DNA from: Oscillospiraceae bacterium
GTDB taxonomy: Bacteria; Bacillota; Clostridia; Oscillospirales; Acutalibacteraceae
DNA length: 45,581 bases
Reading direction: 5' to 3'
NCBI GenBank assembly: GCA_015065425.1
Contig: SVQH01000026.1
Coordinates: forward strand, 1 to 45,581
Shown: positions 219-37,079 of the stretch, in pieces
How the letters are laid out: each line of letters begins with the position of its first letter
How positions within the stretch are numbered: position 1 is the first letter of the stretch
Translations under genes and position numbers: made by a program
Notes under the pieces: generated by a model
Seen by the model: the letters and a program-made list of their open reading frames with translations, nothing else
The model's database searches: none
What the model was told of the DNA's origin: nothing

Positions 219-3200
219 TTATGAGAAAAGGTTTCTGAAGAAGTCAGCTATCTTCTGGAAGAATTCTGCGATCTTCTGGAAGAATCTGATAAATCCGTTA
301 GGTGCTACTGCATTGTCGTCTATGATGTCACCGGTGTACTTGTTGAGAAGTCCGCCGAGTGAGATTTCAATCTGACGAAGGAATGCAAGGTCGCTTGTTG
401 CGAACAGCTGATTCAGGAATGAGTAGTCACCGTTGAATTCTTCAAGCCAGTCATTTGTCTTATGTGCTGCAACATTTGCTGCATAGAAGATATGATATAC
501 AGTGTACATGATTTCATCCATGCCGCCTTCGGAAGCTGCCATCTGTGAGAAGTTCTCAAGAAGTGAGCAGAGGAAGGTATAACCGTCGCCGCTGAGGCTA
601 TCCTGAAGGAGAGCTTCAATAGCTGTTACATTTTCAGGTACGGAGATGAATGTAAGAACTACACGAAGTATTGTTGTTACAAGGTCAACACTGTCTGCAC
701 CTGTAGCATACTGCATTGTGTAAGCCTTTTCACCGTTCTTGGATGTGAAGGAAACTACCTGACCGAGAGTAAGTTCAGCTATAGCACCGTTCAATGTGTC
801 GGTAAGATCGAAGCCTACTTCTTCAGTAAGACTATTGAGAAGCTGTTCGATAAGACCGTCAATATTTACCTGGAAGTCGAAGCCGATTACTTCATAGAGA
901 TCAATTTCACCTGTAAGAGGTTCGATTGTTTCAAGAACTCTGATTACAGCATTGATAACATTCTTGAATGCAGTATCAAGACCGTTAGAGTTAAGGAAGT
1001 AGATTACTCCGGGAAGGATTCCGAATATCTCGTTAAGAGGATCTGCAAGAATTGTATCAACCTTGTTGAGTAAGGGATCAATAATGTATCTGAGAAGTGC
1101 TTCGGGATCGCCTGCAGCCTTTTCCTTATACTCTGCGGGAGTAAGTACTTCGTCGTGGCAGCCGAGTGCTTCGAGTATCGGGATGATACCGTAAGCATAA
1201 CCTTCTGCACCGTGGATGATAACATAGCTGTTTTCATCAGATACTACAGAACCGTCAATACCGTCATCCTTATTGAAGAATGCGAGATCTTCATCGGTAA
1301 GAAGCCATGCAAGTAAGGGATATACGGGCTGGAGGAATTCGAGAAGTCCGTTCACGAATGCATCCTTATCACCGTCTGCAAATGCCTCTACCTTGTAGTT
1401 ATCCCAAACAGATACGTCTATGCCGAGTGCGGACTTAAGGATTGCTGCAATGTGTGCATAAAGCTCGTCGCCGATGCTTTCCTTAAGGTCACCGATGAGT
1501 CCTGTGATTGCGTCAACTATTGTCTCAAGGAGATCTGTCTTATAGATAGATGTACCGATAAGAGAATCAAGGATATCCTGAAGACCGTCGTAGATTTCAC
1601 CGTTATCATCTTCAACACCAAGAAGAACTATCATTGTGTCAATGAAGGAAGCGAGCCACTTGGTGATGTATTCGCCCATTTCTCTTGTATAGAGAGGACC
1701 GTACATATAATCGTATGAACCGCCCATTGTGATGGGTGAAAGGATTTCGCCTGTGTCAGCCTTATCTGTAAGAATCCAGCTGAAGCCCTGCATGGGAACT
1801 TCAACTTCGCTGTCAGTAAGGAATGCCATAATTACATTATAGATTCCTTCGCCGTCTTCACCGAAGAGTTCTACAAGTGCATCCTTGTTGCCTTCATATA
1901 CGAATACATCAAGAACAACTGAAAGAACTATAGTGATGAAGTCGTGTTCTTCTTCGTCTTCTGTGTAAACCATCTTGAAAGCACCCTTGCCCTGTGCATA
2001 CTCGTAGTATTCGAGTTCACCGAAGTAGAATGTTCCGAGATAATCACCAACTGCACCCCAAAGGTCAATACCTGTTTCTTCTTTAAGTATCTTGCTGATA
2101 CCCTCGAAGCTGAGGTCTGAAAGGTCGAAGCCGATAAGCTCTGCCAAGGACATATCCTCACCGAGAGCACTGCCTACACCTTCAAGAATGTAGTTAACGG
2201 GAAGAAGGATGTTATTTACTGCAGCTGTAAGTCCGTCTGCATTTACGAAGTAGAAGAGGTTAAGAAGAATATCAAATACTTCGTCGAAGGGATTTGCAAG
2301 AATTTCATCAATTCTGTCGCAAACTCTGAGAAGGATTGTTTCAAGAACCTGTTCTGTTACGGAGAGCTCACCCTGTGCTGCGGGAATCTCACCAATGTCT
2401 GTATCAACACCGAGCATTGAAAGGATGGGTGCAAGACCGTTTACATATCCGTCGCCGCCGGAGATTGTAAGAAGAGCGGGTTCGCCGTTTTCAAGCTTTG
2501 TAAGAAGCTCATAGTCTTCGCCGAAGAGAACGAGGTCAAGAATCTCGCCTACACCGCCGAATGCTGTTGCAAGTGCCTTACAGAAGCTTGCCTTGTCGAT
2601 TACATTTGTAGCTTCATAATTTATGAGAGCTTCAACATCTGCACCGAGAAGAGCACCTGCTGCTGTAATGAGATATTCATCAAGATCCTTAAGGAGATCT
2701 GCCACAGCACCGATAATGGTGTTAGCCATTTCGTTGGTGTAGATATTAAGGTTAGATGTAATCAAATCGTTAAGACTTGCGGAATCAGTTGCCATTGCAA
2801 TTACAAGGTCTACGATATCGGGAAGATTGTCAACAAGATATTCAGCTGTTTCTTCGCTCCAGTTGTTATCGTATTCGATGTAGTGGAGTGTACGTTCGGG
2901 AAGCTCGGGAAGCTCGTTGAACTTGCCTTCAAGAACGTTATTTACGGCTGCATCAAGTTCTTCACCTTCAAGGCCGAGGAAGTATACCCAGTTCATGCCT
3001 GTGGGTGTGAATTCCATCTTCTGAGCGAAGAGAGCTGCGATAGTCTTAATGAGACCTTCATCAAGTTCAAGCATTTCTTCAAGTACGCTTGCGTTGTCTC
3101 CGTAGAGAACAAGGTCAAGTGCAAGTGAAAGAACAAGTACGATGATGTCGCCTCTGGACTGCTCTGTGAGATGCATCTTATAAGCGAGTTCGCCTGTGGA

Positions 3201-6200
3201 TGATACATAAGGATCTATATCGCCGATGTAGAACTTCTGAAGAATGTTTTCACCGTTTACATCGCGAACGAATGTTACAGTACCGTCAGCATTTACGGTT
3301 GTGTAACCTCTGAATGCATTGTTGATTTCAAAGTCTCCGAGAACTTCCATATCTTCAAGAAGTGTGAATACAGCTTCAAGATCAAGGTTGGTAATGTCTA
3401 TACCGAGAAGTTCATTGAGGTCAAGATCAACTATGCCGTTTTCGTTAAGTACATCAAGTACATTGAGTACGGAACCTGCAAGGTTGTTAACTGCTGTGCC
3501 GAGACCGTTTGCATTGATGAAGTAGAGAAGGTTGGGAAGAAGCTCAAGAGCTTCATTTACTACGTCGCCCATGATTTCATCATATCTTGCAAGAACTGCA
3601 TCAATAACGGGTCTGAACATTGTAGCACAAGAGGGAGCGGGAACGAGAGTGGGAAGATCCACGCCGATAGCTTCAAGGATGGGAGCAAGACCATACTTGT
3701 AGCCTTCGTTACCTGCTATCTTAAGAAGTGTTGTCTTACCGTCAGTATTCTTTACGAAGAACTCGAAGGAGTCACCGAAGAGGAGCCAGTCAAGAACTCT
3801 GAATACAGGAGTAATAACTTCTGTGAGACCTGCTGCAAATGTTTCTCTGTCATAGATTTCAGCATCTGTGTATTCGAGGCCTTCCCAGAGGGATACGTCG
3901 ATACCGAGAACTGCACCTGCAACTTCGATAAGTTTCTTATCAGCAAGCTCATAAAGCTCAGCAGTAAGATCAACTATTGCATTGAGATATTCAGCCTGAT
4001 AGAGGTTGAAGGAGCCTGCAAGGATTTCTTCAATAGTATCAGCATCTTCTGCAGCACCTGTCATTCCGAGAATGCCTGTGATGAGATTGCCGATGTTGTC
4101 GTAGAAGAAGTTTGCTGTTTCCTGAGTTATATCAGACTTATAAGTAAAGTAGTTGATGAATGCTGTCTTGGGAAGAGTGATATCATAAGTTACGGGATCA
4201 ATTTCGCCGCCCATGTAGTTCCAATCATAATCAACATAATTGGGTTCTGCACCGAGAGTGGGAATGATTTCAATGATATCGGTAATTGTGCCTTCATCAA
4301 GCTCAAGAAGTGTTTCAAGTGCTTTTGCATTGTCTGCACCTGTTTCTTCATTCTTATAAAGTGCTACTTCAAGAAGAAGGTTTACAAGGATGGTGAGCAT
4401 TTCAGCTCCGCCCTCTGTTGCTGAGTAAACCATTCTGAATGCGGGCTTACCGTTAGCAGAGGTGTAATATTCCATCTGACCGAGATAGAACTTGTCGATC
4501 TTAGCATCTGTGAGAACCTCACTGATTGCAAGACCTGTTGCCTTTTCAGCAAGCTTTATAAGGTAGAGAAGATCAAAGTTGTCAAGACTTACTTCGCTTT
4601 CGTCTACGCCAAGAGCTTCAGCAAGGAACTTTTCAATGCTTATTCTGTCTTCTTCGGGAAGTACTTCGTTTACTGTATCAAGGAGACTGAGCACGCCGCC
4701 TGCAAGGTTGTTTACAACTGCGGAAAGTCCGTTTGCATTGATGAAGTAAAGAAGGTTGGGAAGAAGTGCAAGAGCTTCATCTACGGGATTTGCAAGTATT
4801 GCTTCTGCACGGGCAAGAACGTTATTAACAAGAGCATAGAATACGTCTTCTGTCTTGTCGCCTTCCTTAACCTGGGGAAGAGTTACGCCGAGTGCCTCAA
4901 AGAGAGGTACAAATGCGTACTTATAGCCTTCAGCACCGGGAAGGTTGATAAGAATCTGAATACCGTCTTCTGTCTTCTTGTCGAAGTACTGGAGATCGTC
5001 TGCGAAGAGAAGCCAGTCAAGTACGGGGAATGCGGGATAGAGCACCTTGTAAAGTCCGTTTACGAAGGAAACTCTGTCTGTAATCTCGTCATCAGTGAAT
5101 CTTGCCATGGTGTTGAACACACCGAGGTCAACATTGATGATGATGTCAAGAAGGTCTGTGATAGCTGCATCAAGTCCGCTTGTGAGCTCTGTTACGAGGT
5201 CAAGGATAGCGTTAAGATTTTCAGCTGTGTAAAGATCTTCATTGAGTGAGAAGCTGTTTGCAAGGATTTCAGCAACCGTTGTTTCTTCACTGCCTGTCAT
5301 TGAAAGAACAGCGGAGATAAGTTCGTTTCTGTTCTGGAATAAGAAGTCAGCTGTCTGCTTGTTCCAGTCACTTGCATAAGAGAGATAGTTAATAGTTCTG
5401 CCGGGAAGGTCAACTGTTGTTGTTCCGGGAATTACTTCAAAGTTTTCACTGTCGATGCTTTCATCGAAGTAGAACCAGTCAATATCCTTGATTTCTATTG
5501 TGTAGCTTTCCTTGATTGCTGCAACTATAGCCTGAACGAGACCGGGATCAAGGTCTGCAAGTTCTTCAATGGCGGCTGCGTTGCCGTCCCAAAGAGCTAC
5601 GTCAATTACGAAGGAGAGAAGAATTGTGATAAAGTCTGCAAAGTCTTCGTCATTGGAGAATCTCATTCTGTATGCGAGCTTGCCGCTTGCAGATGTGTAA
5701 GGAATGATTTCGCCCATGTAGAAGTATGCAAGCTTATTGCCGACAGCATCAGTAATTTCAAGGCCGGTGAACATTTCAACAAGCTCAAATACATACTGAA
5801 GGTTGATGCCGTCAAGTGTAAATACGAGTTCTTCGTTGCCGGTTGCATCTCTGAGAACGTCCTGAAGAAGTCCGTCTACGCTGAGAGATGAGTCACCTGT
5901 AATTTCTGCGAAGGTATTTACGAGGTTGAGAGGACCTGCTACAAGGTTACCTATTGATACCTGAAGACCGCCTGCATTGATGAAGTAGAGAAGCTCGGGA
6001 AGGAGATTTACTATTTCATCTACGGGGTTATTAAGAATTTCATCAATTCTTGTGAAGAGTGAGTTTGCAAGATCAGTTACGAAAAGTTCCATGTCAACAG
6101 TGATCTTTCCGTTTTCGTCAACTGTCTTATACTTAGCTTCTACGCCAAGTCCTGTGCATCCGAGTGCTTCAAGGAGAAGTGCGAGACCTTCCTTATAACC

Positions 6201-9200
6201 GTCGGAGCCCTGGATTGTAATAAGAACATCATCAGCTGTAGATTCAGTGTTGCCGTTGAAGAATTCATAGCCTTCACCGAAGAGGAGCCATGAGAGAAGT
6301 CTGTATGCGGGTCGGAAGAGAACGGTTGCACCTGTGATGAAATCATCTCTGTCAGAAATAGCATAAGTCTTAACTTCGTGGTCTACACCTTCAACTGTTG
6401 TCATTCTGTATTCGAGACCTGTTTCAGCATCAAGTGTATAGGTTTCGCCTTCTGCTTTAGATTCAAATGCATATTCATAGTTCCAGCCTGTAAGGTCTGC
6501 ACCGAGAACAGCACCGATAAGCTCGATAAGAGACTGGTTGAGAACTGCATCTTCACCGAAGAGAAGAGGACTTATAAGGTCAAGGAGACTCTGAAGTGTT
6601 TCGCCTGTAAAGATATCTTCAAGATTGAGCATTTCCTTAAGTGTATCGGAAAGGTTTGCACCCTCTTCAACAACGCCTGTCATACCGAGAACACCGAGGA
6701 TGAGGTCTTCAAAGCCCTCTGCTGTCTTGGAAGCACTGTCATAAGTCCAGTCAGTTGTGTAGTTAAGATACTGGAATGCATAACCGGGAACAAGGATCTT
6801 ACCGTCTTCATCCTTTTCGGTGAGATCAAGTGTCTCGTCAAAGTAGTTCCAGTTGATATCCTTATAAACTACGCTTTCAGGATCTCTGAGTGCACCGAGA
6901 ATACCGCTTACATAGTCTGTAGCTTCTTCATCGTCACCGTTTATAAGTGCGTCGATAGCCTGAGGATTGCTGTAGGGAACAAGTTCACCGTTTTCACCTA
7001 CATAAGTACCTTCGTCTGCAATTATTTCAACGAGAAGAGCAAGAAGAATGGTAATCATGTCATGACGTTCTTCAACTGTTGAATATTCCATTGTGAAGGC
7101 TGTAAGGCCGTTAGCGGAGGTGTAAGCCTTAAGCTGACCTACATAGAGTGAACCGATATATTCATTAAGTTCGCCGTTTACATAAATACCTGTAAAGCTT
7201 GTTATAAGATTGAATATACCCTGAAGTGTAAGGTTTGTAAGGTCAATACCCTGAATATTTGTAAGGTCGATTCTCTGATCTTCATCAAGAAGTCCGTTGA
7301 TAATATCAAGAACATCAACAAGTGAGTCAACGATATTCATAAGGGATACGGAAAGTCCGTTTGCATTGATGAAGTAAACGAGTCCGGGAAGTGTATCAAC
7401 GAGCCAGTTTACGGGATCAGCAGCAAGAAGGTCAATGAAGTTGGAAAGAATTTCAACGAAATCATGAACGAAGAGCTCTTCGTCATAAATCATGTATCCG
7501 TCTTCATTTACGCCTACTTCATACTTTTCGGGCTTGTAGTTTGAAAGGTCAAGTCCGAGAGCCTCGAAGATGGGGATAATTCCCTTTGCATAAGCATTAA
7601 GACCGTTGATAACAATAGCATCATCACCGTAACCTACTGAGCCGGGGCCGTTGTCAATAGTATAGAACAGTCTGTAGTCCGAGCCGAGGAAGATTACGCC
7701 GAGAAGCTTTGATACGGGAGCAAGAATTTCAGCAATAGCATTGATAAATTCATCTTTTGTATCAATATAATCAGCGGATTCGGGATCTGCCCACCACTTA
7801 TATGAAGCCTTTGCTGTCCATTCATATTCGCCTGTGCCGTTGCCGCCTTCGTCAAGTATTTCTACCTGCTGAACATATTTAGCCCAATTCTGAACCTTAG
7901 TTTCGAGAAGTGTGTCAATAATTGAGAGAAGTTCAAGAGGAATTACATCGAAGAGCTGGCCGATAAGGTCAACAAGTGACTTAACTGTATCAGCTGTAAA
8001 GACTTCAGTTGTAAGAAGTTCGTCAATGAATGAACCGAAATCGGTTGCATCTTCGTCAATCATTGTGATGACATAGTCAAGAACATTCTTGAGAACTTCG
8101 TCAGTTGCCTTTGCTGTGTCCTCTGTCCAGTCTGTGTAGTAGTTAAGGTTGTTGATGGAGTGATACATTGAAAGGTCAGAGTAGGTCTGAAGTGTCTGAT
8201 AGTCACCGTCTACCCATTCCTTGGAAATGTCGGTAATGCCGTCTTCAGCCACACCGAATACCATCTTGTTTTCAAGCAGGTAGTCCCAGTTGGGCTGTTC
8301 ACCCATGGAGTCTGCTTTATCTTCAAGTATTACAAGAAGTGCTTCAAGGATACCCTGTGCGGAAATGTTGTCAAGGTTGCCTTCTTCATCGGGAAGGATT
8401 TCCTGTGCAAAGCCGAGCATTCTGTCAAGTGCGGCAGCATTGTCGCCGTACATAAGAAGGTCGATAATTGCGGAGAATGTAACTGTTAATGTATCGGGTC
8501 CGTTGTAATCGAGTGTATATGCTGTCTTACCGGACTTGGAAGCATAAGCTCTTACACCGTAAGTATTTCCGTCACGCTCATAAGGAACGCACATTCCTTC
8601 AAGAGCATAAGAAAGAGGTGAAAGGTCAATGCCGAACATTGTTTCTACTACGAAGTAGATAGTTTCAAGATCAAGACTTTCTATGGAAAGCTTGTAAATA
8701 CCGTCAACAAGTGCCTTATCTTCTGCTGCCTGTGCTTCTGAGTATTCGGGAGTCTCGAAGCCGAGATCAAGCATACCCATAAGAAGGTCAACAAGAGGAG
8801 CGGAGGGATAATTTACGGTATCATTCTTATCGTAAACGAGTCCGAGGAAGCTTGTTAAGAACTGATGGATAAATGCATCAAGGTCAACGTCAGCTATAGG
8901 ACGGATTGTATCGACAAGATTCCATATAGGATGAAGGAGATTCTTAAGAAGAGTTGAAATACCGTCAGACTGAATGAAATAGAAGAGTGAGGGAAGCATA
9001 TCTATTATCTTCTGAACGGGACCGTATTCAACTATAGCTCCATCCACCATAACGGTATCAATGGTAAGAAGCTCAGTAACTCTGTCAAAGAGCTTATCAA
9101 CAAGGTACTCAAAGCCTGCGGCGGAGTCATCCTTATAATCAGCATTGTATTCTGCCTGGGTCTTCATATCATAAATGCCGAGCATTTCGTAAACGGGGAT

Positions 9201-12200
9201 GATAGCACCTGTGTAGCACTCTGCACCGTTTATAACGATAGCATTATTAAAGAGACCGAGGTCTGTACCTGTGAAGAGGAGACCGAGGATGGGGGCAAGG
9301 GGCTTGAGAAGCTCACAGAAGATTCCTGCGAAGATTTCACGGGCATTGTCAGCACCGTCTACAAGGGGTTCACCGTTTAAGTACCAGTAGTATTCCTTAA
9401 CGGCTTCGCCCTCATCATTTACAGTTTCCTTAACGTCAACTGCAAGTGCGGGGAATTCGTTTACATAGCCTGCTTCACCGGGCTTTAAGGGCTTAAATTC
9501 ATCAACGATGAGTTCGCCTGTCTCTTCATCATACTTATCTGAATAATCATAAGTAAGGTAACCGAAGGACTTATACCAGGTAAGAAGGTCAACACCTGCG
9601 TCTGCACCGCCGGAGGATATCTGGTCTTTAATGAGATTAACGATCATATCCTGATCTTTGAGACCTTCACCGATGCCTACAACAAGGTCGATAACATTCA
9701 TAATACCTTCGTTGTTGAACATCTCGTTAATAAGGTCAAGAAGATATTCGTTAACGCTGCCGTTATGCTCTGCGAGCATTTCGGGGTCTATCATATTGAC
9801 GATGGTGTTAGCCATTGCGTCAACGTTATTATAAAGGTAGGAAGCCTTTTCCCTGGTCCAGTTGTTTGCATACTTTAAGTATACAAAATCTGCAGAAGTA
9901 AGGTTATATCTTGAACCTTCTTCGTTGGACTGATACCAGTCATAATCTTCAAGTGTATAGTCCTGAGGTAAGAACAATTCAACGAGAGCAGCAAGTGCAT
10001 CGTCTGCATTTATACCTGCAAGGATAGCATCTACCTCTGCAGGAAGCTCTGTACCTGCCAATGTTGCCATAAGTCCGGAAAGGTTGCCGTCAACCGCAAT
10101 GAATTTAAGAAGCCAGTCAAGAATTGCATACAGCATATCAGCCTTATCGGCTTCTATTGTGTAACGCTGTTTTCCGCCGAGATTATTATTGAAGTTCTGA
10201 GATCTGATTGAAGAAGCCTGAACTTTAGTACCGAGAGAAGCCCACATACCTGCGTTGATGTCGGGTATGGAGATTGTGGAGAAGTCGATTGCAGGTGTAT
10301 CACCTGATTCATCTTCATCTTCTTCATCACTTACAAGGAAGTTGTTGATGATACCGTTGATGTCGGAAAGGTCTTCGACTTTGAGAAGCTCTTCAAGGTC
10401 AAGAAGACTACCGAGGTTAAGATCAACAGGAACGTCAACTATATCTACAAGAGCATCATTGATAACACCTGTGAACAGACCGAGAAGGCCGCCGAGGTTA
10501 GCCCACTCCCAAAGAGCAGCAGCCTTGTCAAATCCCTGAATTTCAATAGTTGCCTTTATCTGTATCTGAGTTGAAAGAGCATTGAGAAGAGGCTGAACAA
10601 AGCCGTAGGATACAGACTGCATAAGGTTGGGAATAATACCCATAACCGTATCAATGGGCTTTGCAGCCAACTTTTCAACAAGGGAAAGAAGAGGTACAAA
10701 CAATGCATTGGCAAACTGAGCTGCAGTTGCACCGTTTCCTGATGTACCGAAGGTTGTTGAAAGGGGATTTGTAACTGTGGGATTATTGTTGTTTATTGTT
10801 GCGGAAATACCGAGGGTTTCAAAGAGAGTACCCCAGACATTATTGTAGCCCTGAACACCGTTAAGAACGAGCTTAAGGTGACCATAAGCGGAAAGGCCTT
10901 CAATAAATACGTCTGCATCACCGATAACAGGAATATTATATGAAGCTTCAGCTTCGTCACAATAAGCGTAAATAAGTCTGTCGATTCTCGGTGTTTCATA
11001 GGTATAGTTTGTGAAGAGAACCTGAAGAACGGGAATAACAGAAGTGAAAACATCACCGATTACCTGAGTAAAGGTTGTGTAATCGTTAACACCCCATGAG
11101 TAATTTGCAAGGTCTTCACCTGTAACCTCACCGTCATTATTGCCGATTCGGTCAAAATATGTCCAATCTTCATTTGCTGTGCGAAGAGCGGAAATAAACG
11201 CATTGTACTTGCCGGCTTTGCCGTTTGCGGTGGATGCAAGTGCTTCGGCAAGATATACGGGATAAATCTTAATACCGAGATCTGAGAATGCCTTTGCAAG
11301 ACGGGGAGTTCCCTGCTTACCGTTAAAGTATGCATCAAGAACACCCTTTTTAAGGGTAAGGTCCTCAACGCCGCCAAGTCCTGCAAGAATACCGGCAAGG
11401 TCAAGAGCACCGTCTGCAGCACTGTTGGAGGGTGTTGCAAGCCAGGATTCGTCGGGAAGAACTGTTTCGCCGGGAACGAAAAGATTTTCGATAAGACCAC
11501 CGATAAGATCAACGAGCATGGGGAACAGCATTCCGACGATGGTATTGATCATTTCATCGTTGAAGAGCATATCAAGAAGGAGATTCTCAATATATTCGGA
11601 AAGAGTATGGATAGCAGGAAGAACATCGCCTGTTTCGGGGTCGATTTCTTCATTTTCACGGTATACACCGATAAGCTTTGTGAAAGCTTCGGATGTGATA
11701 AATCCGTCGAGTTTACCGATAACGGTAAGAATCTTCTGTTCGTTTACTACATAGTCATCCTGGTCAAGATATTCCTCTCGAACCATATCCTTTTCCTGAG
11801 CATAACGGGTTGTGTAGTAACCGGAGCCTGCGGGAGTGTCAAGCTGAACCTGCTTGAACGCACCCCAAGCCAGTGCTATAACATCTTCAATAGCTTTTTG
11901 GTATTCAGGTATAAAGCTATACCAGGTTTTGAGAGTATACAGGTCATACTGAGAACCTGTGCAATTTGCAAGTACCCATTCATAAAGTGCAACATCAATA
12001 TTAGCGATGTTTCTCTTTACTGCAGAGAAGTTAGCATTTGTAACTTCATCAGCCTGTTTTCCGTCGAAAGCAAGAGTATTTTCATCAATATCAAATGCTG
12101 AGTCAAGAAGATTGAAGAGCTGCTGACGGCTTCTGTTATAAAGAGTCGAATAGAGAGACTTTATAAATTCGTCAATCTGTTCGGGATAGTTACCGTAGAT

Positions 12201-14003
12201 CTGAGCTGCCTTTGTTGAACCGAGCTCTGTTATGGCAGTATTGTAGTCAGCTCTGAGTGCATTAGCCTTAGGCTCTGCATTTGCAATAATATTCTTTATA
12301 GAATTGAAAGAAACAAGATTATACTTTTCATATCTGATGGATTCAAAATATGAATAGAAGTCTGCAAAAGTAACCTCGTGACCGCGGTACTTAACTTCCT
12401 TGATAAGCTCATCTCTGAAAGCCTTAACATCATTAAACGTATACTGACCGCCGTTGTTGTCAGCAAATACCTTTGTAATATTTTCTGCTTCAAAGCTTGA
12501 TTCGATAGCAGTTACCTTTGCATTGAAGTATGCAGCAACCTGCTGAAGCATAAGAGCATCAACGGGGCATTCTTCACCTGCCTGTGTGTAGGGATAGCTT
12601 TCATAATTGATAGCACCCCACATAGCTTCATCTTCATTGTAAATCTCAGTCTCGTCGTGAGTCATACGGAAGATGATTTCATCATAGAGGTCTGTAAGGT
12701 CATAAATCTCAATGAGGTCTGTGAGTGTCTCAATGTGATTTGTGAACATAGCGGGGCTGTATCCGTACTGTGCCTGGAAAGCAGTCTTTGTACCCTCGGA
12801 GCAGCCGTCGATGATGCTGTATATAACGTTAGTATCCTCGAGAAGCTCAACAAGGTTAGCTCTGTTTTCGGGCACACGGACATCTGTCCATGCTTCATAA
12901 CTGTCGCGGTCTAAATAGCCGTCAACATGTGCTCCGTCTCTTATCCATTCAACAAGAGGCAGATATTTTGCAGCTTCAACAGCACCTGTACATGCATTGG
13001 CATACTGATCATAAATGCCAACCTGAGTATTGGTGATGTAGAAGTCAACGTAATAATTGTCAACGTTTGCAAGAGCCTGACTGTAGGGAAGATATGCGGG
13101 CTCTACAGCATTGAGAGTATCAAGGTCCCATGAGTAAATAACACCGGGATTTCCTCTCCATGCATTATAACCTTCCTGGAAGGAAGCTGCATTAACATAG
13201 TTAAGGTAGTTTGTTATAGCAGAAAGGTTGGGAGCGGCTGTTGTGCCATAGCTGTAAGAAGGTGCACCGGAGTTTTCATACCAGCCCTTCATTCTGTAGT
13301 AGTAGTCAGTACCGGAGTTTGTATTCTCATTGGTACCGGAACCAGTCGTTGTGGACCAGTTTGAACCGTAAGAGTCACTCTGTGCAGACTTAGCGGTAGC
13401 TGTTACCGTATAGTTAATCTGCGTATTGACATTTGCGGGAACCGCTGCTGCAGTAGCATAGTCTGTAGTAATAGCAGCCTTTACAGTACGAGTGATAACA
13501 ACAGAATTGGTCATACTTCCGGAGAAGGGAGCTGCAGGCCAGCCACCCTTGTTATAACCGGTATAGTAAGCATCTGAGCTGCTGCTGTACGAATAGTTAC
13601 CGAGAGACGGCAACAGAGTATCAACGAAATTCTGCTGATATGTATTAAGGGAAAGCTTACCCTTAATATAAGTACGCATTCTTTCGTGATGTGTGTAGCT
13701 TGCGTAATCGGCTCTTACGATAGCATACAACAGGTCAGCTATCTTATAATAGTGACCCTTGGCAGTTGTATCCGTAATCGTAACGGAAGTGCCGCTGGGA
13801 CTCGCAGCTACGTTTGCCCCTGTCAAGACACCGTCAAGCTCTGCGGTATCAAAGGCAGCCTGAAGTGCATCCCACTGTGCCTGAGTCGATGCGTCCGCTG
13901 TGGGAACGAGACTCGGAAGAGCAATGGAGAAGCAGCTCACTGCCATAAGCAGGGAGAGAAACATACTAAGAACTTTCTTTGGTAACTTAGCTCTTGTTTC
14001 CAT
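219..14003 (-). CDS. Giant secreted repeat protein (4594 aa), function unknown
   Basis: I do not recognise a named family. The ATG has a strong AGAAGGAG site about 9 bases upstream. Residues 1-39 form a Sec signal peptide (basic start, hydrophobic core, ADA-S cleavage site). Residues about 40-950 are non-repetitive, first Ser/Thr/Tyr-rich, then Asp/Glu/Tyr-rich and probably helical. From about residue 950 to 4560 there are about eight tandem units of 400-550 residues. Each unit has the same ordered signatures: a SDWT..TA block, a VLDWLLFG block, a GYKYG..PILEALG block, LLPNLLYFINANGL, a YTSANGKxAFxM block, and an ITILLSLLLDVAL block. The last residues are three Phe-rich heptads, FFQKIAE, FFQKIAD and FFRNLFS. 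There are no LPXTG, SLH or catalytic motifs. It is probably a surface or extracellular scaffold or adhesin, which is inference. It is monocistronic, with its own promoter region and terminator. Confidence 0.93.
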   Translation of the reverse strand: METRAKLPKKVLSMFLSLLMAVSCFSIALPSLVPTADASTQAQWDALQAAFDTAELDGVLTGANVAASPSGTSVTITDTTAKGHYYKIADLLYAIVRADYASYTHHERMRTYIKGKLSLNTYQQNFVDTLLPSLGNYSYSSSSDAYYTGYNKGGWPAAPFSGSMTNSVVITRTVKAAITTDYATAAAVPANVNTQINYTVTATAKSAQSDSYGSNWSTTTGSGTNENTNSGTDYYYRMKGWYENSGAPSYSYGTTAAPNLSAITNYLNYVNAASFQEGYNAWRGNPGVIYSWDLDTLNAVEPAYLPYSQALANVDNYYVDFYITNTQVGIYDQYANACTGAVEAAKYLPLVEWIRDGAHVDGYLDRDSYEAWTDVRVPENRANLVELLEDTNVIYSIIDGCSEGTKTAFQAQYGYSPAMFTNHIETLTDLIEIYDLTDLYDEIIFRMTHDETEIYNEDEAMWGAINYESYPYTQAGEECPVDALMLQQVAAYFNAKVTAIESSFEAENITKVFADNNGGQYTFNDVKAFRDELIKEVKYRGHEVTFADFYSYFESIRYEKYNLVSFNSIKNIIANAEPKANALRADYNTAITELGSTKAAQIYGNYPEQIDEFIKSLYSTLYNRSRQQLFNLLDSAFDIDENTLAFDGKQADEVTNANFSAVKRNIANIDVALYEWVLANCTGSQYDLYTLKTWYSFIPEYQKAIEDVIALAWGAFKQVQLDTPAGSGYYTTRYAQEKDMVREEYLDQDDYVVNEQKILTVIGKLDGFITSEAFTKLIGVYRENEEIDPETGDVLPAIHTLSEYIENLLLDMLFNDEMINTIVGMLFPMLVDLIGGLIENLFVPGETVLPDESWLATPSNSAADGALDLAGILAGLGGVEDLTLKKGVLDAYFNGKQGTPRLAKAFSDLGIKIYPVYLAEALASTANGKAGKYNAFISALRTANEDWTYFDRIGNNDGEVTGEDLANYSWGVNDYTTFTQVIGDVFTSVIPVLQVLFTNYTYETPRIDRLIYAYCDEAEASYNIPVIGDADVFIEGLSAYGHLKLVLNGVQGYNNVWGTLFETLGISATINNNNPTVTNPLSTTFGTSGNGATAAQFANALFVPLLSLVEKLAAKPIDTVMGIIPNLMQSVSYGFVQPLLNALSTQIQIKATIEIQGFDKAAALWEWANLGGLLGLFTGVINDALVDIVDVPVDLNLGSLLDLEELLKVEDLSDINGIINNFLVSDEEDEDESGDTPAIDFSTISIPDINAGMWASLGTKVQASSIRSQNFNNNLGGKQRYTIEADKADMLYAILDWLLKFIAVDGNLSGLMATLAGTELPAEVDAILAGINADDALAALVELFLPQDYTLEDYDWYQSNEEGSRYNLTSADFVYLKYANNWTREKASYLYNNVDAMANTIVNMIDPEMLAEHNGSVNEYLLDLINEMFNNEGIMNVIDLVVGIGEGLKDQDMIVNLIKDQISSGGADAGVDLLTWYKSFGYLTYDYSDKYDEETGELIVDEFKPLKPGEAGYVNEFPALAVDVKETVNDEGEAVKEYYWYLNGEPLVDGADNAREIFAGIFCELLKPLAPILGLLFTGTDLGLFNNAIVINGAECYTGAIIPVYEMLGIYDMKTQAEYNADYKDDSAAGFEYLVDKLFDRVTELLTIDTVMVDGAIVEYGPVQKIIDMLPSLFYFIQSDGISTLLKNLLHPIWNLVDTIRPIADVDLDAFIHQFLTSFLGLVYDKNDTVNYPSAPLVDLLMGMLDLGFETPEYSEAQAAEDKALVDGIYKLSIESLDLETIYFVVETMFGIDLSPLSYALEGMCVPYERDGNTYGVRAYASKSGKTAYTLDYNGPDTLTVTFSAIIDLLMYGDNAAALDRMLGFAQEILPDEEGNLDNISAQGILEALLVILEDKADSMGEQPNWDYLLENKMVFGVAEDGITDISKEWVDGDYQTLQTYSDLSMYHSINNLNYYTDWTEDTAKATDEVLKNVLDYVITMIDEDATDFGSFIDELLTTEVFTADTVKSLVDLIGQLFDVIPLELLSIIDTLLETKVQNWAKYVQQVEILDEGGNGTGEYEWTAKASYKWWADPESADYIDTKDEFINAIAEILAPVSKLLGVIFLGSDYRLFYTIDNGPGSVGYGDDAIVINGLNAYAKGIIPIFEALGLDLSNYKPEKYEVGVNEDGYMIYDEELFVHDFVEILSNFIDLLAADPVNWLVDTLPGLVYFINANGLSVSLMNIVDSLVDVLDIINGLLDEDQRIDLTNIQGIDLTNLTLQGIFNLITSFTGIYVNGELNEYIGSLYVGQLKAYTSANGLTAFTMEYSTVEERHDMITILLALLVEIIADEGTYVGENGELVPYSNPQAIDALINGDDEEATDYVSGILGALRDPESVVYKDINWNYFDETLDLTEKDEDGKILVPGYAFQYLNYTTDWTYDSASKTAEGFEDLILGVLGMTGVVEEGANLSDTLKEMLNLEDIFTGETLQSLLDLISPLLFGEDAVLNQSLIELIGAVLGADLTGWNYEYAFESKAEGETYTLDAETGLEYRMTTVEGVDHEVKTYAISDRDDFITGATVLFRPAYRLLSWLLFGEGYEFFNGNTESTADDVLITIQGSDGYKEGLALLLEALGCTGLGVEAKYKTVDENGKITVDMELFVTDLANSLFTRIDEILNNPVDEIVNLLPELLYFINAGGLQVSIGNLVAGPLNLVNTFAEITGDSSLSVDGLLQDVLRDATGNEELVFTLDGINLQYVFELVEMFTGLEITDAVGNKLAYFYMGEIIPYTSASGKLAYRMRFSNDEDFADFITILLSFVIDVALWDGNAAAIEELADLDPGLVQAIVAAIKESYTIEIKDIDWFYFDESIDSENFEVIPGTTTVDLPGRTINYLSYASDWNKQTADFLFQNRNELISAVLSMTGSEETTVAEILANSFSLNEDLYTAENLNAILDLVTELTSGLDAAITDLLDIIINVDLGVFNTMARFTDDEITDRVSFVNGLYKVLYPAFPVLDWLLFADDLQYFDKKTEDGIQILINLPGAEGYKYAFVPLFEALGVTLPQVKEGDKTEDVFYALVNNVLARAEAILANPVDEALALLPNLLYFINANGLSAVVNNLAGGVLSLLDTVNEVLPEEDRISIEKFLAEALGVDESEVSLDNFDLLYLIKLAEKATGLAISEVLTDAKIDKFYLGQMEYYTSANGKPAFRMVYSATEGGAEMLTILVNLLLEVALYKNEETGADNAKALETLLELDEGTITDIIEIIPTLGAEPNYVDYDWNYMGGEIDPVTYDITLPKTAFINYFTYKSDITQETANFFYDNIGNLITGILGMTGAAEDADTIEEILAGSFNLYQAEYLNAIVDLTAELYELADKKLIEVAGAVLGIDVSLWEGLEYTDAEIYDRETFAAGLTEVITPVFRVLDWLLFGDSFEFFVKNTDGKTTLLKIAGNEGYKYGLAPILEAIGVDLPTLVPAPSCATMFRPVIDAVLARYDEIMGDVVNEALELLPNLLYFINANGLGTAVNNLAGSVLNVLDVLNENGIVDLDLNELLGIDITNLDLEAVFTLLEDMEVLGDFEINNAFRGYTTVNADGTVTFVRDVNGENILQKFYIGDIDPYVSSTGELAYKMHLTEQSRGDIIVLVLSLALDLVLYGDNASVLEEMLELDEGLIKTIAALFAQKMEFTPTGMNWVYFLGLEGEELDAAVNNVLEGKFNELPELPERTLHYIEYDNNWSEETAEYLVDNLPDIVDLVIAMATDSASLNDLITSNLNIYTNEMANTIIGAVADLLKDLDEYLITAAGALLGADVEALINYEATNVIDKASFCKALATAFGGVGEILDLVLFGEDYELLTKLENGEPALLTISGGDGYVNGLAPILSMLGVDTDIGEIPAAQGELSVTEQVLETILLRVCDRIDEILANPFDEVFDILLNLFYFVNADGLTAAVNNILLPVNYILEGVGSALGEDMSLAELIGFDLSDLSFEGISKILKEETGIDLWGAVGDYLGTFYFGELEYYEYAQGKGAFKMVYTEDEEEHDFITIVLSVVLDVFVYEGNKDALVELFGEDGEGIYNVIMAFLTDSEVEVPMQGFSWILTDKADTGEILSPITMGGSYDYMYGPLYTREMGEYITKWLASFIDTMIVLLGVEDDNGEIYDGLQDILDSLIGTSIYKTDLLETIVDAITGLIGDLKESIGDELYAHIAAILKSALGIDVSVWDNYKVEAFADGDKDAFVNGLLEFLQPVYPLLAWLLTDEDLAFFNKDDGIDGSVVSDENSYVIIHGAEGYAYGIIPILEALGCHDEVLTPAEYKEKAAGDPEALLRYIIDPLLNKVDTILADPLNEIFGILPGVIYFLNSNGLDTAFKNVINAVIRVLETIEPLTGEIDLYEVIGFDFQVNIDGLIEQLLNSLTEEVGFDLTDTLNGAIAELTLGQVVSFTSKNGEKAYTMQYATGADSVDLVTTILRVVLTFISVPENVTAIEALLQDSLSGDGYTFLCSLLENFSQMAASEGGMDEIMYTVYHIFYAANVAAHKTNDWLEEFNGDYSFLNQLFATSDLAFLRQIEISLGGLLNKYTGDIIDDNAVAPNGFIRFFQKIAEFFQKIADFFRNLFS
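249..291 (-). repeat. Short tandem duplication encoding the Phe-rich C-terminal heptads
   Basis: ATCTTCTGGAAGAAT occurs twice in direct repeat 21 bases apart. On the coding strand this gives two nearly identical heptads, FFQKIAE and FFQKIAD, followed by FFRNLFS at the C terminus. Phe-Phe pairs every seven residues would form an amphipathic helix with one aromatic face. Confidence 0.7.
300..11150 (-). repeat. About eight tandem protein-level repeats inside the giant gene
   Basis: The YFINANGL signature recurs near positions 990, 2245, 3515, 4737, 5975, 7365 and 8975, with a degenerate relative (IIPNLMQS) near 10620. Unit lengths from the N-terminal end are about 547, 537, 463, 413, 407, 423 and 418 residues. 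The units near 3.5 and 4.7 kb are also close at DNA level over the signature, differing by only a few bases across about 50. The N-terminal units are longer and more diverged. The pattern suggests growth by recent internal duplication in the C-terminal half. Confidence 0.85.
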
Positions 14004-14315: not shown

Positions 14316-16121
14316 ATGGATAAGCTATTAACCAAACTCAAAATACTGTCAAAAACGGATGTTGCGGCTGCTGTTCTTATGGCGGCGGCTTTCGTATATC
14401 TTTTTGTTACGGCGTCCTTTGACGGAACCATATCCGACGAGGCTTTTTACATATCCGTACCTTACCGCTTAATGAACGGTGACGGGCTTTTTACGGACGA
14501 ATGGCATCTGTCACAGCTGTCGGCTGTGCTTTTATATCTTCCCGTAAAGCTGTATACAGGCATTACGGGCGGCACGGCAGGGATAATTCTTTTTATAAGA
14601 AGACTTTTCTGCATTATGCAGCTTACAGTCGGTGCATTTACGTATAAGACACTGCACAAAGAAGGGCTCTCTGCTGTCATAATCAGCCTTTCATTTATGC
14701 TGTATTCAGTAATAGGACTCAACACACTGAGCTATAATACAATGGGAGTCGCTCTCCTTCTTGTCATGATTTGTGTTTCCTATTCTCTTTCCGAAAAGCC
14801 GTCACTTCTCAAAATGTTTTTCCTCGGCTCTCTTACGGCAATGTTTATACTGTGTCAGCCTGTGGGAGTATTTTTATATCTTATATATTTCACAGCCGTC
14901 CTGTGTATCATAATAATATGCAGGGCAAAAAATAAAAATATTCCCTTCCCCTTCAGACCTGTGTCTTTTATGATGACGGTTCTCGGCATTCTGCCTGTTT
15001 TAGCATTTTTCCTGTATCTTCTTCTTAAAAATTCGGACATTGAAACAATTATCAAATGTGTTCCCGGTATACTTTCCGATGTAGAACACATGGAAATTAC
15101 CGATACCCTCGGAATTGAAACCTTTTCTGCAGTGCAATTTTTTATTGATATGACCATGGCGGCAGGTGCAATACCTCTTATTATAACCGCGACGCTTATA
15201 ATCGTCTCTGTCATAATAAAAAAGAAAAATAAAAACCTTGCAGTAATCATCACATCTTCCGCACTCATAGTATTTACCCTTGTTTTCTGGTTCCGTCTGT
15301 TCTTTATGAACAACACCACAGAGACCGACGACATAAACTTCTTTTTCTTCCCCCTCGCACTTTCGGGAATTGCATTTTATCTTCTCAGTGAAAAGAAAAA
15401 CAACATGGTATTCATTCTTTTCTGGTGTACGGGAATACTGTATGCACTGTTTATGACCATAAGCTCAAATCTCCGTCTTCACGCAAGTGTAAACGGCTAT
15501 ATAATTGCCGCCGCAGGCTCTCTCATACTCACAAAAAATCTTCTCGGAGAAATAAAAACAAAAAATACGGGGGACAAGCTTCAAAAAATATCTGCCGCCG
15601 TGCTTATTACCGCTGTTTTCGGTTTTTCCGTATTCCACACAGGTACCGCAGTTTTAAATTTTGTCATATTAAGAGCATCTTTTCAGAGTGCAAAAATGAC
15701 TCAGGGAATATATTCAGGAATGACACTTCCGTCGGATCAGGCACTCACATACACTGATATTTATAATGATGCAATAAAAATCAAAGAGCTTATAAAACCG
15801 GATGATAAGATATTTATTATCGAAAACATACCTGCACTGTATCTCGACGGAGAATTTAATATGGGTGTTCATTCCGGATGGTTTATTGCGGAACAGCTGG
15901 CAGTTCCCGAAATAAGAGACCGTTTCAGAAATTATTATGAAATAAACCCCGAAAACTTACCGGAGTTTGTATATGTCCCGGCTTATACATATACCGAAAC
16001 CGGACTTGCCCCCGTAAATCCGAAAAAACTTTCAGATTTTGCATACGCTCTTTTCGAGGGAGAAGCCGAGGATATCGGAAGCGGTTTACTTATAACGGTA
16101 AAAGGAATAAAAGATGAATAA
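14316..16121 (+). CDS. GT-C fold glycosyltransferase-like polytopic membrane protein (ArnT/PMT, GT39-like)
   Basis: The 601-residue protein has an N-terminal membrane segment followed by an acidic SDEAFY motif at the start of the first extracellular loop (residues about 38-43). That position matches the Asp/Glu dyad of GT-C enzymes, which transfer sugars from polyprenyl-phosphate donors outside the membrane. About ten further hydrophobic segments follow, then a soluble C-terminal domain of about 130 residues. It is the first gene of an operon and overlaps the next gene by 8 bases. The GT-C assignment rests on topology and the dyad; donor and acceptor are unknown. A pure surface-polymer membrane protein without catalytic activity is the alternative. 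Confidence 0.6.
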   Translation: MDKLLTKLKILSKTDVAAAVLMAAAFVYLFVTASFDGTISDEAFYISVPYRLMNGDGLFTDEWHLSQLSAVLLYLPVKLYTGITGGTAGIILFIRRLFCIMQLTVGAFTYKTLHKEGLSAVIISLSFMLYSVIGLNTLSYNTMGVALLLVMICVSYSLSEKPSLLKMFFLGSLTAMFILCQPVGVFLYLIYFTAVLCIIIICRAKNKNIPFPFRPVSFMMTVLGILPVLAFFLYLLLKNSDIETIIKCVPGILSDVEHMEITDTLGIETFSAVQFFIDMTMAAGAIPLIITATLIIVSVIIKKKNKNLAVIITSSALIVFTLVFWFRLFFMNNTTETDDINFFFFPLALSGIAFYLLSEKKNNMVFILFWCTGILYALFMTISSNLRLHASVNGYIIAAAGSLILTKNLLGEIKTKNTGDKLQKISAAVLITAVFGFSVFHTGTAVLNFVILRASFQSAKMTQGIYSGMTLPSDQALTYTDIYNDAIKIKELIKPDDKIFIIENIPALYLDGEFNMGVHSGWFIAEQLAVPEIRDRFRNYYEINPENLPEFVYVPAYTYTETGLAPVNPKKLSDFAYALFEGEAEDIGSGLLITVKGIKDE

Positions 16122-17340: not shown

Positions 17341-17344
17341 AAGT

Positions 17345-29882: not shown

Positions 29883-29911
29883 TTGACTTATTTTTTCTTT
29901 TTTGCTATTAT
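29883..29911 (+). promoter_or_regulatory. Promoter of the exported hydrolase gene
   Basis: TTGACT (29883-29888), a 17-base T-rich spacer and TATTAT (29906-29911), about 30 bases before the ATG. Confidence 0.7.
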
Positions 29912-29940
29912 ATTTAAAAACAAACAAAGGAGCGTTTATT

Positions 29941-31602
29941 ATGAAAAAGGTTTTCAAACAAGTGATTTCAGTTATTCTCTGTGCACTTATAATCAGTTGT
30001 CCCCTTATTCCCGGAGTTTCCGCATCAACCTATATACGCGGAGACGGAAACAGAGCAACTCAGGTACCAACAGTTTATGTACAAGGTTACGGCTCGGCAT
30101 TATATGCCGATTCACATGACAAAAACTCTCAACACCTTGTCGGTGGAAGCAAAGATATTCTTACAGACGGTTCTCTTGAAGGAATACTTGACGGTATTAT
30201 GGCTCCGCTTATTGAAGGTATACAGACAGATGACTGGACGAATTACAGTAACTTTCTTGTTGAAAAACTGGTTTCAATCTTAAGCTTTATGGCATTGGAT
30301 AAAAACGGTGAGGCCTCCAACGGCTCGGGTAACCAATGCGAGAGAGATATATATGTCACCAACAGAAATAATTACAACGGCAAATATGACCTTTATGCAT
30401 ACACTCACCTTTATGACTGGAGAATAGATCCGTTTATTTCCGCCGCCGAGCTTAACGATTATATCAAAAAGGTAAAAACCGCAACCGGCTTTGATAAAGT
30501 AAATATTGTCGGCAGATGTCTTGGTGCAAATATCATTATGGCATATCTCAGTGAATACGGCTATGACGATATTAATGCCATTAACCTTTATGTAGGCGGT
30601 CTTGACGGTTTTGAATTCTTAGGTGCCCTCTTCTCCGGTCAGGTTATTATAGAATCAGATGATCTTAACAACTTTCTCCAGTATATGATTGATGATAACG
30701 GAGATCCCGTTATATCCTTTGTAAAATCACTTGTTGCAATACTCAATTTTACCAAAGGACTCAATATCCCTATAGAACTTGTATATAAAATATATGAAGA
30801 AGTTTATTTTGAAGTAATACCGAGAACTCTCAAGGAAACTTTCGGCACAATGCCTGCTTTCTGGTCAATGGTCGGTAAAGACTATTATGAAGCTGCAATG
30901 GAGCTTAACTTCCACTCAGACGAGGACAAAGCAGAATATGCAAAGCTTATTGAAAAAACCGATAAATATTATAATAATGTCACACTTAAAACCGAAAATA
31001 TCCTTAACGGAGCTATCGATGCAGGTGTCAAAGTTTATATTACTGCAAAATACGGCTCTGTAAATATTCCTCTCAGTGATAAAGCGAAGTATCACTCTGA
31101 CGGTATAATTTCCGTTGATACTCAGACTTTAGGTGCAACCTCAGCAATAATGGGCTCAACATTCAGTAGCTCATATATAAAAAAAGCAGAAGAAAACGGC
31201 ACTGCCGGATATATCTCTCCCGACAAAACTATTGATGCATCTACTTGTTTCTTACCGGACCATACATGGTTTATAAAAGGCAGTACTCATGGGGTTATGC
31301 CATACAACATTGATGTTTTACAGGCACAGATATTCAATGCTTCCGGCTACGGCGATGCTTCAGCTTATGTTACTGTAGGCACGCTTCCTGAATTTCCTCA
31401 GTATCTGTGCATGGTATCAGATGATGAATACGCACCTCTTGTTCCTTTGACAGAAGAAAACTCAAACATCGGAGATGAGTGGAATGTAAGCATTTTTGAC
31501 CATTTTTCAAACTTCTTTGAAAAATTATTCAGTTTCATTACAGAACTTGTATATCAGTTGAAAAACATGATACAGTCAGCTGTTACAGAAGTGAAAAAAT
31601 AA
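29941..31602 (+). CDS. Exported LCAT/lipase-like alpha/beta hydrolase with Cys at the nucleophile position
   Basis: The ATG at 29941 (553 aa) has an AAAGGAGCG site. A Sec signal peptide ends near GVSA (about residue 29). The region YDWRIDP...VKTATGFDKVNIVG resembles LCAT/PGAP1-type acyl hydrolases, where a GHSMG elbow normally follows. Here the elbow reads GRCLG, with Cys193 (codon TGT) in place of Ser. A candidate catalytic His is His450 in STHGVMP. The C terminus is a Phe-rich amphipathic stretch (FSNFFEKLFSF) like the tail of the giant protein. It is monocistronic. It may be a Cys-dependent acyl hydrolase or transferase, or a catalytically altered binding protein. Confidence 0.75.
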   Translation: MKKVFKQVISVILCALIISCPLIPGVSASTYIRGDGNRATQVPTVYVQGYGSALYADSHDKNSQHLVGGSKDILTDGSLEGILDGIMAPLIEGIQTDDWTNYSNFLVEKLVSILSFMALDKNGEASNGSGNQCERDIYVTNRNNYNGKYDLYAYTHLYDWRIDPFISAAELNDYIKKVKTATGFDKVNIVGRCLGANIIMAYLSEYGYDDINAINLYVGGLDGFEFLGALFSGQVIIESDDLNNFLQYMIDDNGDPVISFVKSLVAILNFTKGLNIPIELVYKIYEEVYFEVIPRTLKETFGTMPAFWSMVGKDYYEAAMELNFHSDEDKAEYAKLIEKTDKYYNNVTLKTENILNGAIDAGVKVYITAKYGSVNIPLSDKAKYHSDGIISVDTQTLGATSAIMGSTFSSSYIKKAEENGTAGYISPDKTIDASTCFLPDHTWFIKGSTHGVMPYNIDVLQAQIFNASGYGDASAYVTVGTLPEFPQYLCMVSDDEYAPLVPLTEENSNIGDEWNVSIFDHFSNFFEKLFSFITELVYQLKNMIQSAVTEVKK

Positions 31603-36906: not shown

Positions 36907-37079
36907 TCAGAAAAAGCGAAAACATAACCAAATATAACGTCATTTTCTTGTATAATATAACAAAATATTAAAAAACCTAAAAAAAATCAAAAAACTTTGT
37001 GTTACTTTTTTCTTCTTTTGAGACTACTTATACGAAGAAGGAAATTTCTTCAAAAAAAAACAAAAAGGAGAGCTTGCAA

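What the first reader, a model, noticed from the sequence alone, without database searches (positions are those of the whole stretch)
219..14003. A 4594-residue secreted protein built from an unnamed repeat
Almost 14 kb is one reading frame with a signal peptide and about eight repeats of 400-550 residues. The repeats share ordered signatures such as LLPNLLYFINANGL and YTSANGKxAF. No catalytic motif, LPXTG, SLH, dockerin or known adhesin domain is visible. A gene this long must be under selection to stay open. It could be a new class of surface fibre or helical scaffold.
Basis: partly seen in the sequence, partly recalled or inferred. Interest (0 to 1): 0.72.

Follow-up and report, generated by a model that had tools for sequence, protein, structure and literature searches.

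The report
Giant secreted repeat protein, shared tail
A rumen-type bacterium encodes a very long secreted protein built from an undescribed, probably helical repeat, and it ends in a short helix that many otherwise unrelated secreted proteins of the same bacteria also carry at their very end, probably to hold them on the cell surface.

Summary
Window 219-14003 (minus strand) is one 4594-codon frame: Sec-type leader, about 1000 non-repeat residues, seven repeat units (two divergent) and a half unit. The unit has no convincing match in Pfam, NCBIfam or PDB sequences. dN/dS against a syntenic orthologue is 0.20. Unit matches: all 26 genus genomes examined, 4 of 10 other genomes of the family, 0 of 23 from other families of the order, no other genome of a 391-genome class sample. 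Frames reach 10,643 codons.

22 of 23 members with a complete end finish in an amphipathic aromatic helix (…SFWQKIIxFFxKIIxWFKNLF-stop); the 1068-aa paralogue does not. A profile from giant tails alone finds 22 places (E<0.1) in the own genome, 19 within 10 residues of a stop, 16 of these in unrelated frames. Over 59 genomes the forward profile gives 381 hits, its reversal 2.

Most likely the tail is a surface-retention module and the giant a surface-displayed helical repeat protein.

The parts
219..14003 (-). whole gene, 4594 aa secreted repeat protein
   Evidence: single open frame; dN/dS 0.20 against the syntenic orthologue in L032
13887..14003 (-). leader, residues 1-39 (Sec-type signal peptide by eye)
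   Evidence: basic n-region and hydrophobic core, highest hydropathy peak of the protein; leaders of the same type in relatives
10866..13886 (-). N-terminal region without clear repeats, residues 40-1046
   Evidence: no self-match at E<=1e-3 before residue 1047; aligned region in relatives with complete N-termini (printed in part); least conserved part, 69-73% identity to the orthologue
9240..10865 (-). unit 1 (divergent), residues 1047-1588
   Evidence: profile match partial
7617..9239 (-). unit 2 (divergent), residues 1589-2129
6210..7616 (-). unit 3, residues 2130-2598
4938..6209 (-). unit 4, residues 2599-3022
3714..4937 (-). unit 5, residues 3023-3430
2460..3713 (-). unit 6, residues 3431-3848
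1212..2459 (-). unit 7, residues 3849-4264
558..1211 (-). unit 8, C-terminal partial unit, residues 4265-4482
   Evidence: relatives with a complete 3' end also finish with a partial unit
222..308 (-). C-terminal amphipathic tail, residues 4566-4594 (VAPNGFIRFFQKIAEFFQKIADFFRNLFS)
   Evidence: alignment of giant tails; profile hits at stop codons; hydrophobic moment 0.76
29902..31602 (+). secreted alpha/beta-hydrolase-like protein ending in an amphipathic stretch that may be a degenerate tail (by eye; not among the own-genome hits of the tail profile)
   Evidence: distant relative beside the 1593-aa paralogue in L019

Best explanation
The gene encodes a giant, acidic, mostly helical repeat protein that is exported by Sec and held at the cell envelope by its last 25 or so residues. 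These fold into an amphipathic aromatic/basic helix that sits on the outer membrane leaflet or on an anionic envelope polymer. The chain of units then projects outward as a surface structure. The same C-terminal helix is a lineage-wide module found on otherwise unrelated exported proteins, with 6-23 profile hits in 25 of the 26 genus genomes examined and 2 in one that is 73% complete. Bearers include hydrolases, a phosphoesterase, InlB-type repeat proteins and probably some single-cohesin proteins. It therefore works as a general surface-retention tag alongside dockerins and sortases. Shown here: the frame, the repeats, the selection, the family distribution, the shared tail, its terminal position and its amphipathic sequence. 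Inferred: export, helical folding, binding to the envelope, and outward display.
For: 1. 22 of the 23 family members whose 3' end is in hand finish in the tail (the window, 19 named loci, and two of three own-genome paralogues, by eye), also where an NPS-repeat linker separates it from the last domain (L050).
2. A profile made from 16 giant-protein tails only (A4) finds 31 places at E<=10 in the own genome. I counted the 22 with E<0.1: 19 end within 10 residues of a stop, and 16 of those 19 are not giant-family members. Of these 16, 13 have a complete N-terminus in hand and 13 of 13 have a Sec-type leader by eye.
3. One search returned 30 loci. 29 of 30 end within 4 residues of the stop; L138, from another family, does not. 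Eight of the 30 are giants by unit match and one is from the own genome; of the other 21 frames, 20 end at the stop.
4. Forward profile A6 at E<=0.01: 381 hits in 59 genomes (360 in 26 genus genomes, 18 in 4 of the 10 other genomes of the family, 3 in 23 genomes of other families; table, sum). The reversed-sequence profile gives 2, one of which is itself a real tail.
5. In some searches units and tails occur in the same five genera of the family (g1, g3, g4, g9, g10) and neither in the other six. Six further genera of the family (g35-g40) have neither at E<=0.001.
6. Bearers include InlB-type repeats with Big_2, alpha/beta and GDSL hydrolases, a metallophosphoesterase and MBG/YDG domains. Two small cohesin-type proteins end in tail-like helices (L104 by Pfam; L183 by its match to L104). 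In R. flavefaciens the anchoring cohesin ScaE is fixed by sortase (PMC4081043, passages).
7. Mean hydrophobic moment of 24 tails 0.74, periodicity about 100 degrees, mean charge +1.9; the body is acidic, net -516, pI 4.05.
Against: 1. No localisation data exist and no structure could be predicted.
2. The genome has three sortases, so the tail is not the only route to the wall.
3. Similar helices also occur near the start of two hydrolase-like frames (L106, L107) and just behind a leader (L105), so position is not absolute.
4. The cohesin tail in the own genome is weak on its own (E 0.85). Among the 20 cohesin matches, the frame end was in hand for 15, and 2 of these show a tail; most others end in dockerin-like sequence.
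5. One of the four family members in the own genome (1068 aa, L018) lacks the tail.
6. A6 contains tails of the own genome and of giants from several of the genomes searched, so part of the 381 is circular; only 30 loci were inspected.
7. In g10 the single tail hit is the giant's own (L137), and in g3 it may be, so the genus match is partly trivial.
8. An amphipathic helix could equally mediate self-association.
Confidence: 0.5

Rival explanations
1. The tail is an assembly helix: tails of the same or different exported proteins bundle with each other, or with a common partner, outside the cell. The giant is then the core of a released or matrix-like complex, not an anchored fibre.
For: Regular aromatic/basic spacing with helical periodicity. 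Many unrelated exported proteins carry the same helix. The reversed control shows that a specific sequence direction is conserved, not only amphipathicity.
Against: Linker-like Gly/Asn/Ser/Asp/Pro-rich stretches precede the helix in many bearers, as before wall anchors (by eye). Sequence varies between bearers while the amphipathic pattern is kept, which suits lipid or polymer binding more than a fixed partner.
Confidence: 0.2
2. The tail is a recognition sequence for an undescribed processing or transfer enzyme (a CTERM-like system) and is removed after export.
For: Terminal position, many-to-one distribution across unrelated exported proteins, and lineage restriction, as in the CTERM systems named in the search listing.
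Against: The tail is an amphipathic helix with K/R and D/E spread along it, not a signature plus transmembrane helix plus basic cluster (the tripartite layout is recalled, and stated for MYXO-CTERM in the abstract start). No partner gene was sought.
Confidence: 0.15
3. The giant protein is mainly a binder or carrier of hydrophobic ligands, each unit being a closed helical pocket, and is not a structural fibre.
For: Units are rich in amphipathic hydrophobic helices (GRAVY +0.19 for unit 5; peaks). Each unit keeps its own identity by position, as specialised modules would.
Against: No similarity to any lipid-binding family. No direct evidence.
Confidence: 0.12
4. It is an ordinary spacer or stalk whose sequence matters little.
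For: Length varies widely between members: frames of 1068 to 10,643 codons.
Against: dN/dS 0.09-0.27 in every 400-codon stretch. Units are conserved by position and are mostly not homogenised.
Confidence: 0.05

Closest known systems
Giant1-5 surface proteins of Apilactobacillus kunkeei (PMC12863079; outline and abstract read)
   Same: Exported proteins of 3,000-8,000 residues that take up a notable share of a small genome.
   Different: Giant1-4 are predicted to carry N-terminal beta-solenoids. Here the units look helical. No direct sequence comparison was made.
Sortase (LPXTG) C-terminal anchors, including ScaE of Ruminococcus flavefaciens (PMC4081043, passages)
   Same: C-terminal, often preceded by a linker, on unrelated exported proteins; in this lineage probably also on some single-cohesin proteins.
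   Different: No LPXTG-like motif in the last 100 residues of 15 non-giant tail bearers and the tailed cohesin (L068 at a contig edge not included). The tail is an amphipathic helix, not signature plus transmembrane helix plus basic end.
CTERM sorting systems: PEP-CTERM, GlyGly-CTERM, MYXO-CTERM (search listing and abstract starts only)
   Same: Short C-terminal homology region shared by many exported proteins of one genome and limited to certain lineages.
   Different: No tripartite architecture. No NCBIfam model matches: best E 0.037 to a porin family, below its cut-off. No processing enzyme known.
Membrane-active amphipathic helices (phenol-soluble modulin alpha, CAP18 C-terminus, FtsA C-terminus)
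   Same: Weak Pfam matches of some tails: PSMalpha best E 0.0011 in 2 of 24, CAP18_C best 0.0097 in 3 of 24, FtsA_C 3 in 1 of 24.
   Different: Those are free peptides or cytoplasmic membrane hooks (recalled), not C-terminal tags of exported proteins. The matches are near chance, and the commonest weak match of all was phiKZ_IP, a phage head protein family (10 of 24, best 0.013; also 2.1e-5, below cut-off, over the tail of L091).

Membership tests
LPXTG/sortase-anchored surface proteins | LPXTG-like motif near the C-terminus | tested here: not met
   None in the last 100 residues of 15 non-giant tail bearers; only three internal loose matches in the giant (2342, 2767, 3277). Sortases themselves are present in the genome.
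LPXTG/sortase-anchored surface proteins | C-terminal transmembrane helix followed by basic cluster | tested here: not met
   In the giant the only listed hydropathy peak without charges is the leader; the tail is amphipathic with charges throughout.
S-layer-homology anchored proteins | SLH domains | tested here: not met
   No Pfam match at E<=1 in the whole protein.
Cellulosome scaffoldins | cohesin repeats or dockerin in the giant | tested here: not met
   No Pfam match, although the genome has 42 dockerin and 15 cohesin matches, 36 and 13 of them over the cut-off.
CTERM sorting systems | C-terminal homology region on many unrelated exported proteins of a genome | tested here: met
   19 of 22 own-genome hits (E<0.1) at the stop codon, 16 of the 19 outside the giant family; 13 of 13 with known N-terminus have a leader by eye.
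CTERM sorting systems | signature motif + transmembrane helix + basic end | tested here: not met
   Amphipathic helix only; no NCBIfam CTERM model matches 24 tails at E<=10.
CTERM sorting systems | dedicated processing enzyme co-occurring with the tag | not tested
   No phylogenetic profiling of partner genes was run.
Any described domain family for the repeat unit | significant profile match | tested here: not met
   Pfam on the whole protein; NCBIfam; PDB sequences by phmmer and by profile: none. Pfam on 18 members: only single-member matches, best HD_4 8.5e-4.
Any described fold for the repeat unit | structural match | not testable with these tools

The most novel reading that the evidence does not exclude
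A lineage of rumen Oscillospiraceae uses a general, non-covalent C-terminal address tag: an amphipathic FWxKIIxFFxKIIxWFKNLF helix. It puts this tag on up to about twenty exported proteins per genome, including giant helical repeat proteins of up to 10,643 residues and anchoring cohesins, so that it takes over jobs that sortase or SLH anchors do in better-known cellulosome bacteria.
Probability: 0.35. Interest if true: 0.8.

Novelty: new variant of a known kind. Interest (0 to 1): 0.62.

Why it matters
If true, it adds a new kind of C-terminal surface address to Gram-positive-type bacteria and lets one predict part of the surface proteome of a poorly studied gut lineage from sequence alone. 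It would also suggest how some cohesin proteins and hydrolases stay on the cell without LPXTG or SLH. The giant repeat family codes for a unit with no relative that I could find, and more than a hundred unit sequences are already in hand (126, some near-identical), so one solved unit would open the whole family.

Tried and rejected
Domain and structure-sequence searches with the whole protein, with the 18-member alignment and with single tails gave nothing convincing. A first joint alignment of 71 stretches was too gappy (3998 columns) and was replaced by 18 end-anchored rows. I considered that the giant is a scaffoldin because the genome is rich in dockerins and rejected it: no cohesin or dockerin in it. 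I considered a conserved operon. The divergent three-gene membrane operon and the genes up to 25056 are syntenic in one close species (L167); no match was found in L017, L018, L019 or L047, and L033 and L038 are cut inside the giant so that their upstream side could not be seen. A plasmid search with 14316-18283 gave no match. A strict DNA pattern for the motif found nothing in the own genome. Eight literature searches listed no paper that, by title, abstract start or the passages I read, describes this unit or this tail; a text search for tail letters returned 2 unrelated papers.

Full report
What is there. Window 219-14003 on the minus strand is one open frame of 4594 codons; chance persistence is about 10^-128 at the window's composition. 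From N to C it has a Sec-type leader (by eye), about 1000 residues without clear repeats, two divergent and five clear units (408-542 residues in my register), a final partial unit, and a 29-residue tail. A crude propensity and amphipathicity script on a 30-unit alignment suggests mostly helix (41% helix, 10% strand). The body is acidic (net -516, pI 4.05), and its hydrophobic peaks all carry charges, unlike the leader. Pfam at E<=1, NCBIfam, and PDB sequences by single sequence and by profile gave no match. Among 18 relatives scanned against Pfam at E<=0.1, eight families matched one member each, best HD_4 at 8.5e-4, which I take as chance.

Selection and history. A syntenic orthologue (L032, Oscillospiraceae bacterium SIG574) is 79.8% identical over 4573 aligned codons, with dN/dS 0.20 overall and 0.09-0.27 in each 400-codon stretch. 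Of 124 units with matches both inside and outside their own protein, 119 match better outside, 76 of these at the same position counted from the C-terminus; near-identical proteins in the set (L043/L044 for instance) add to that count. Within-protein best identity has a median of 33%, and only L038 and L042 contain pairs above 60%. The array is therefore old and largely position-specific.

Distribution. The unit profile hits 30 of 59 related genomes at E<=1e-5: 26 of 26 of the genus (own included), 4 of 10 other genomes of the family (g3, g4, g9, g10), and 0 of 23 genomes, one from each of 23 other families of the order. In a class sample of 391 genomes only the own genome matched; that sample held eight genomes of six further genera of the family, without a match, and the scan scored only a few candidates per genome. 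A scan of named genomes with one peptide pattern, so not exhaustive, gave 23 loci, labelled Clostridia, Clostridiales, Oscillospiraceae, Ruminococcaceae or Ruminococcus. 16 of the 23 titles name a ruminant or deer gut site. Frames reach 10,643 codons (G016, G021) and 10,516 (G014). The own genome holds three further members of 2695, 1593 and 1068 codons.

The tail. Of 23 members whose 3' end is in hand, 22 finish in an amphipathic aromatic helix (window, L032-L040, L042, L045, L047-L054, L017, L019, by eye); L018 does not. In L050 an NPS-repeat linker precedes it, and in L049 further residues follow it. A profile from 16 giant tails only (A4) gave 31 places at E<=10 in the own genome. I counted the 22 with E<0.1. 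Nineteen end within 10 residues of a stop codon. Three do not: L072, and L077 and L080, which lie near the start of their frames. Three of the 19 are family members. The other 16 include InlB-type repeat proteins with Big_2 domains, alpha/beta and GDSL hydrolases, a metallophosphoesterase, GLUG and MBG/YDG proteins, and several with no family. Three of these 16 are cut by a contig edge; the other 13 all have a leader by eye. A broader profile (A6, which includes own-genome tails and tails of giants from several searched genomes, and so is partly circular) gave 381 hits at E<=0.01 in 59 genomes: 360 in 26 genus genomes (2-23 each), 18 in g3, g4, g9 and g10, 0 in six other genera of the family, and 3 in 23 genomes of other families (sum). 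Its reversed copy gave 2 hits, one of which is a genuine tail. Of the 30 loci returned, 29 end within 4 residues of the stop and L138 does not; 8 are giants by unit match, 1 is from the own genome, and of the other 21 frames 20 end at the stop. In the class sample, 8 of the 390 other genomes had one hit each at E<=0.001. Four of these eight lie at a C-terminus, two in the last 80 residues and two near a start, so isolated cases exist elsewhere.

How it may work. The tail has a mean hydrophobic moment of 0.74, helical periodicity and a mean charge of +1.9. Among its faint profile resemblances are membrane-active helices, next to an apparently meaningless phage family. An exported protein with such a helix at its end would lie on the outer membrane face or on an anionic envelope polymer. 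The acidic repeat chain would then point away from the anionic wall. This step is inference. Two small cohesin-type exported proteins end in similar helices (L104, tail E 0.85; L183), out of 15 cohesin matches whose frame end was in hand. In R. flavefaciens the anchoring cohesin ScaE is fixed by sortase (PMC4081043, passages). The review of cellulosome bacteria lists LPxTG, LysM, C-terminal TM helix and Cu-amine-oxidase-like domains as non-SLH anchors; the word amphipathic does not occur in its main text (PMC11557425, passages). The genome also has three sortases, so the tag would be an additional route.

Against this reading. Nothing here shows localisation. Self-assembly or enzymatic processing would give the same distribution. 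The tail-like helix also occurs near the start of two hydrolase-like frames (L106, L107), and the 1068-aa paralogue lacks it. The match between tail and giants by genus is partly trivial: in g10 the single tail hit is the giant's own (L137), and in g3 the single hit was not inspected.

Novelty. Giant surface proteins and C-terminal sorting tags are both known kinds; the repeat unit and this tag are, as far as these searches go, undescribed (papers; listings, abstracts and passages only). I file it as a new variant of a known kind.

Noticed in passing
window 36999-41117 (+): A 1372-aa RHS-repeat protein with a C-terminal AHH nuclease domain, looking like an interbacterial polymorphic toxin; the frame after it (41140-41919) has no Pfam match and could be its immunity gene (guess).
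   Followed up: no
window 29902-31602 (+): Secreted lipase-like protein ending in FSNFFEKLFSFITELVYQLKNMI..., perhaps a degenerate tail; a 29% relative lies next to the 1593-aa paralogue in L019.
   Followed up: partly
G000 C55, C37, C51, C1 and others: The genome is cellulosome-rich: 42 dockerin and 15 cohesin matches, and two sortases close to a cohesin/dockerin frame on contig C1.
   Followed up: partly
L106 and L107, first 60 residues: A BD-FAE-type esterase and a frame that looks like a GH16 glucanase (from its sequence, not searched) begin with a tail-like amphipathic helix and show no ordinary leader by eye.
   Followed up: no
L142, L143: Exported-looking proteins (frames of 284 and 291 codons) in another Clostridia family end in NFFTSVGDFFKSIGDFFVNLFGGGN: similar C-terminal helices exist singly outside this lineage.
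   Followed up: no
L043 and L044 (handles G021 and G016): The 10,643-codon giants of two species-level MAGs share units that are 100% identical (three unit pairs), far above the similarity of most other giants: recent transfer, shared contigs or binning error.
   Followed up: no
L033, L036, L050, antisense strand: Antisense frames of up to 5254 codons lie opposite giant genes, perhaps a codon-usage effect; a trap for gene callers.
   Followed up: no
L018 5248-8451 (-): The 1068-aa family member without the tail lies next to an ABC/FtsX-like transporter frame (the transporter named from its sequence, not searched).
   Followed up: no
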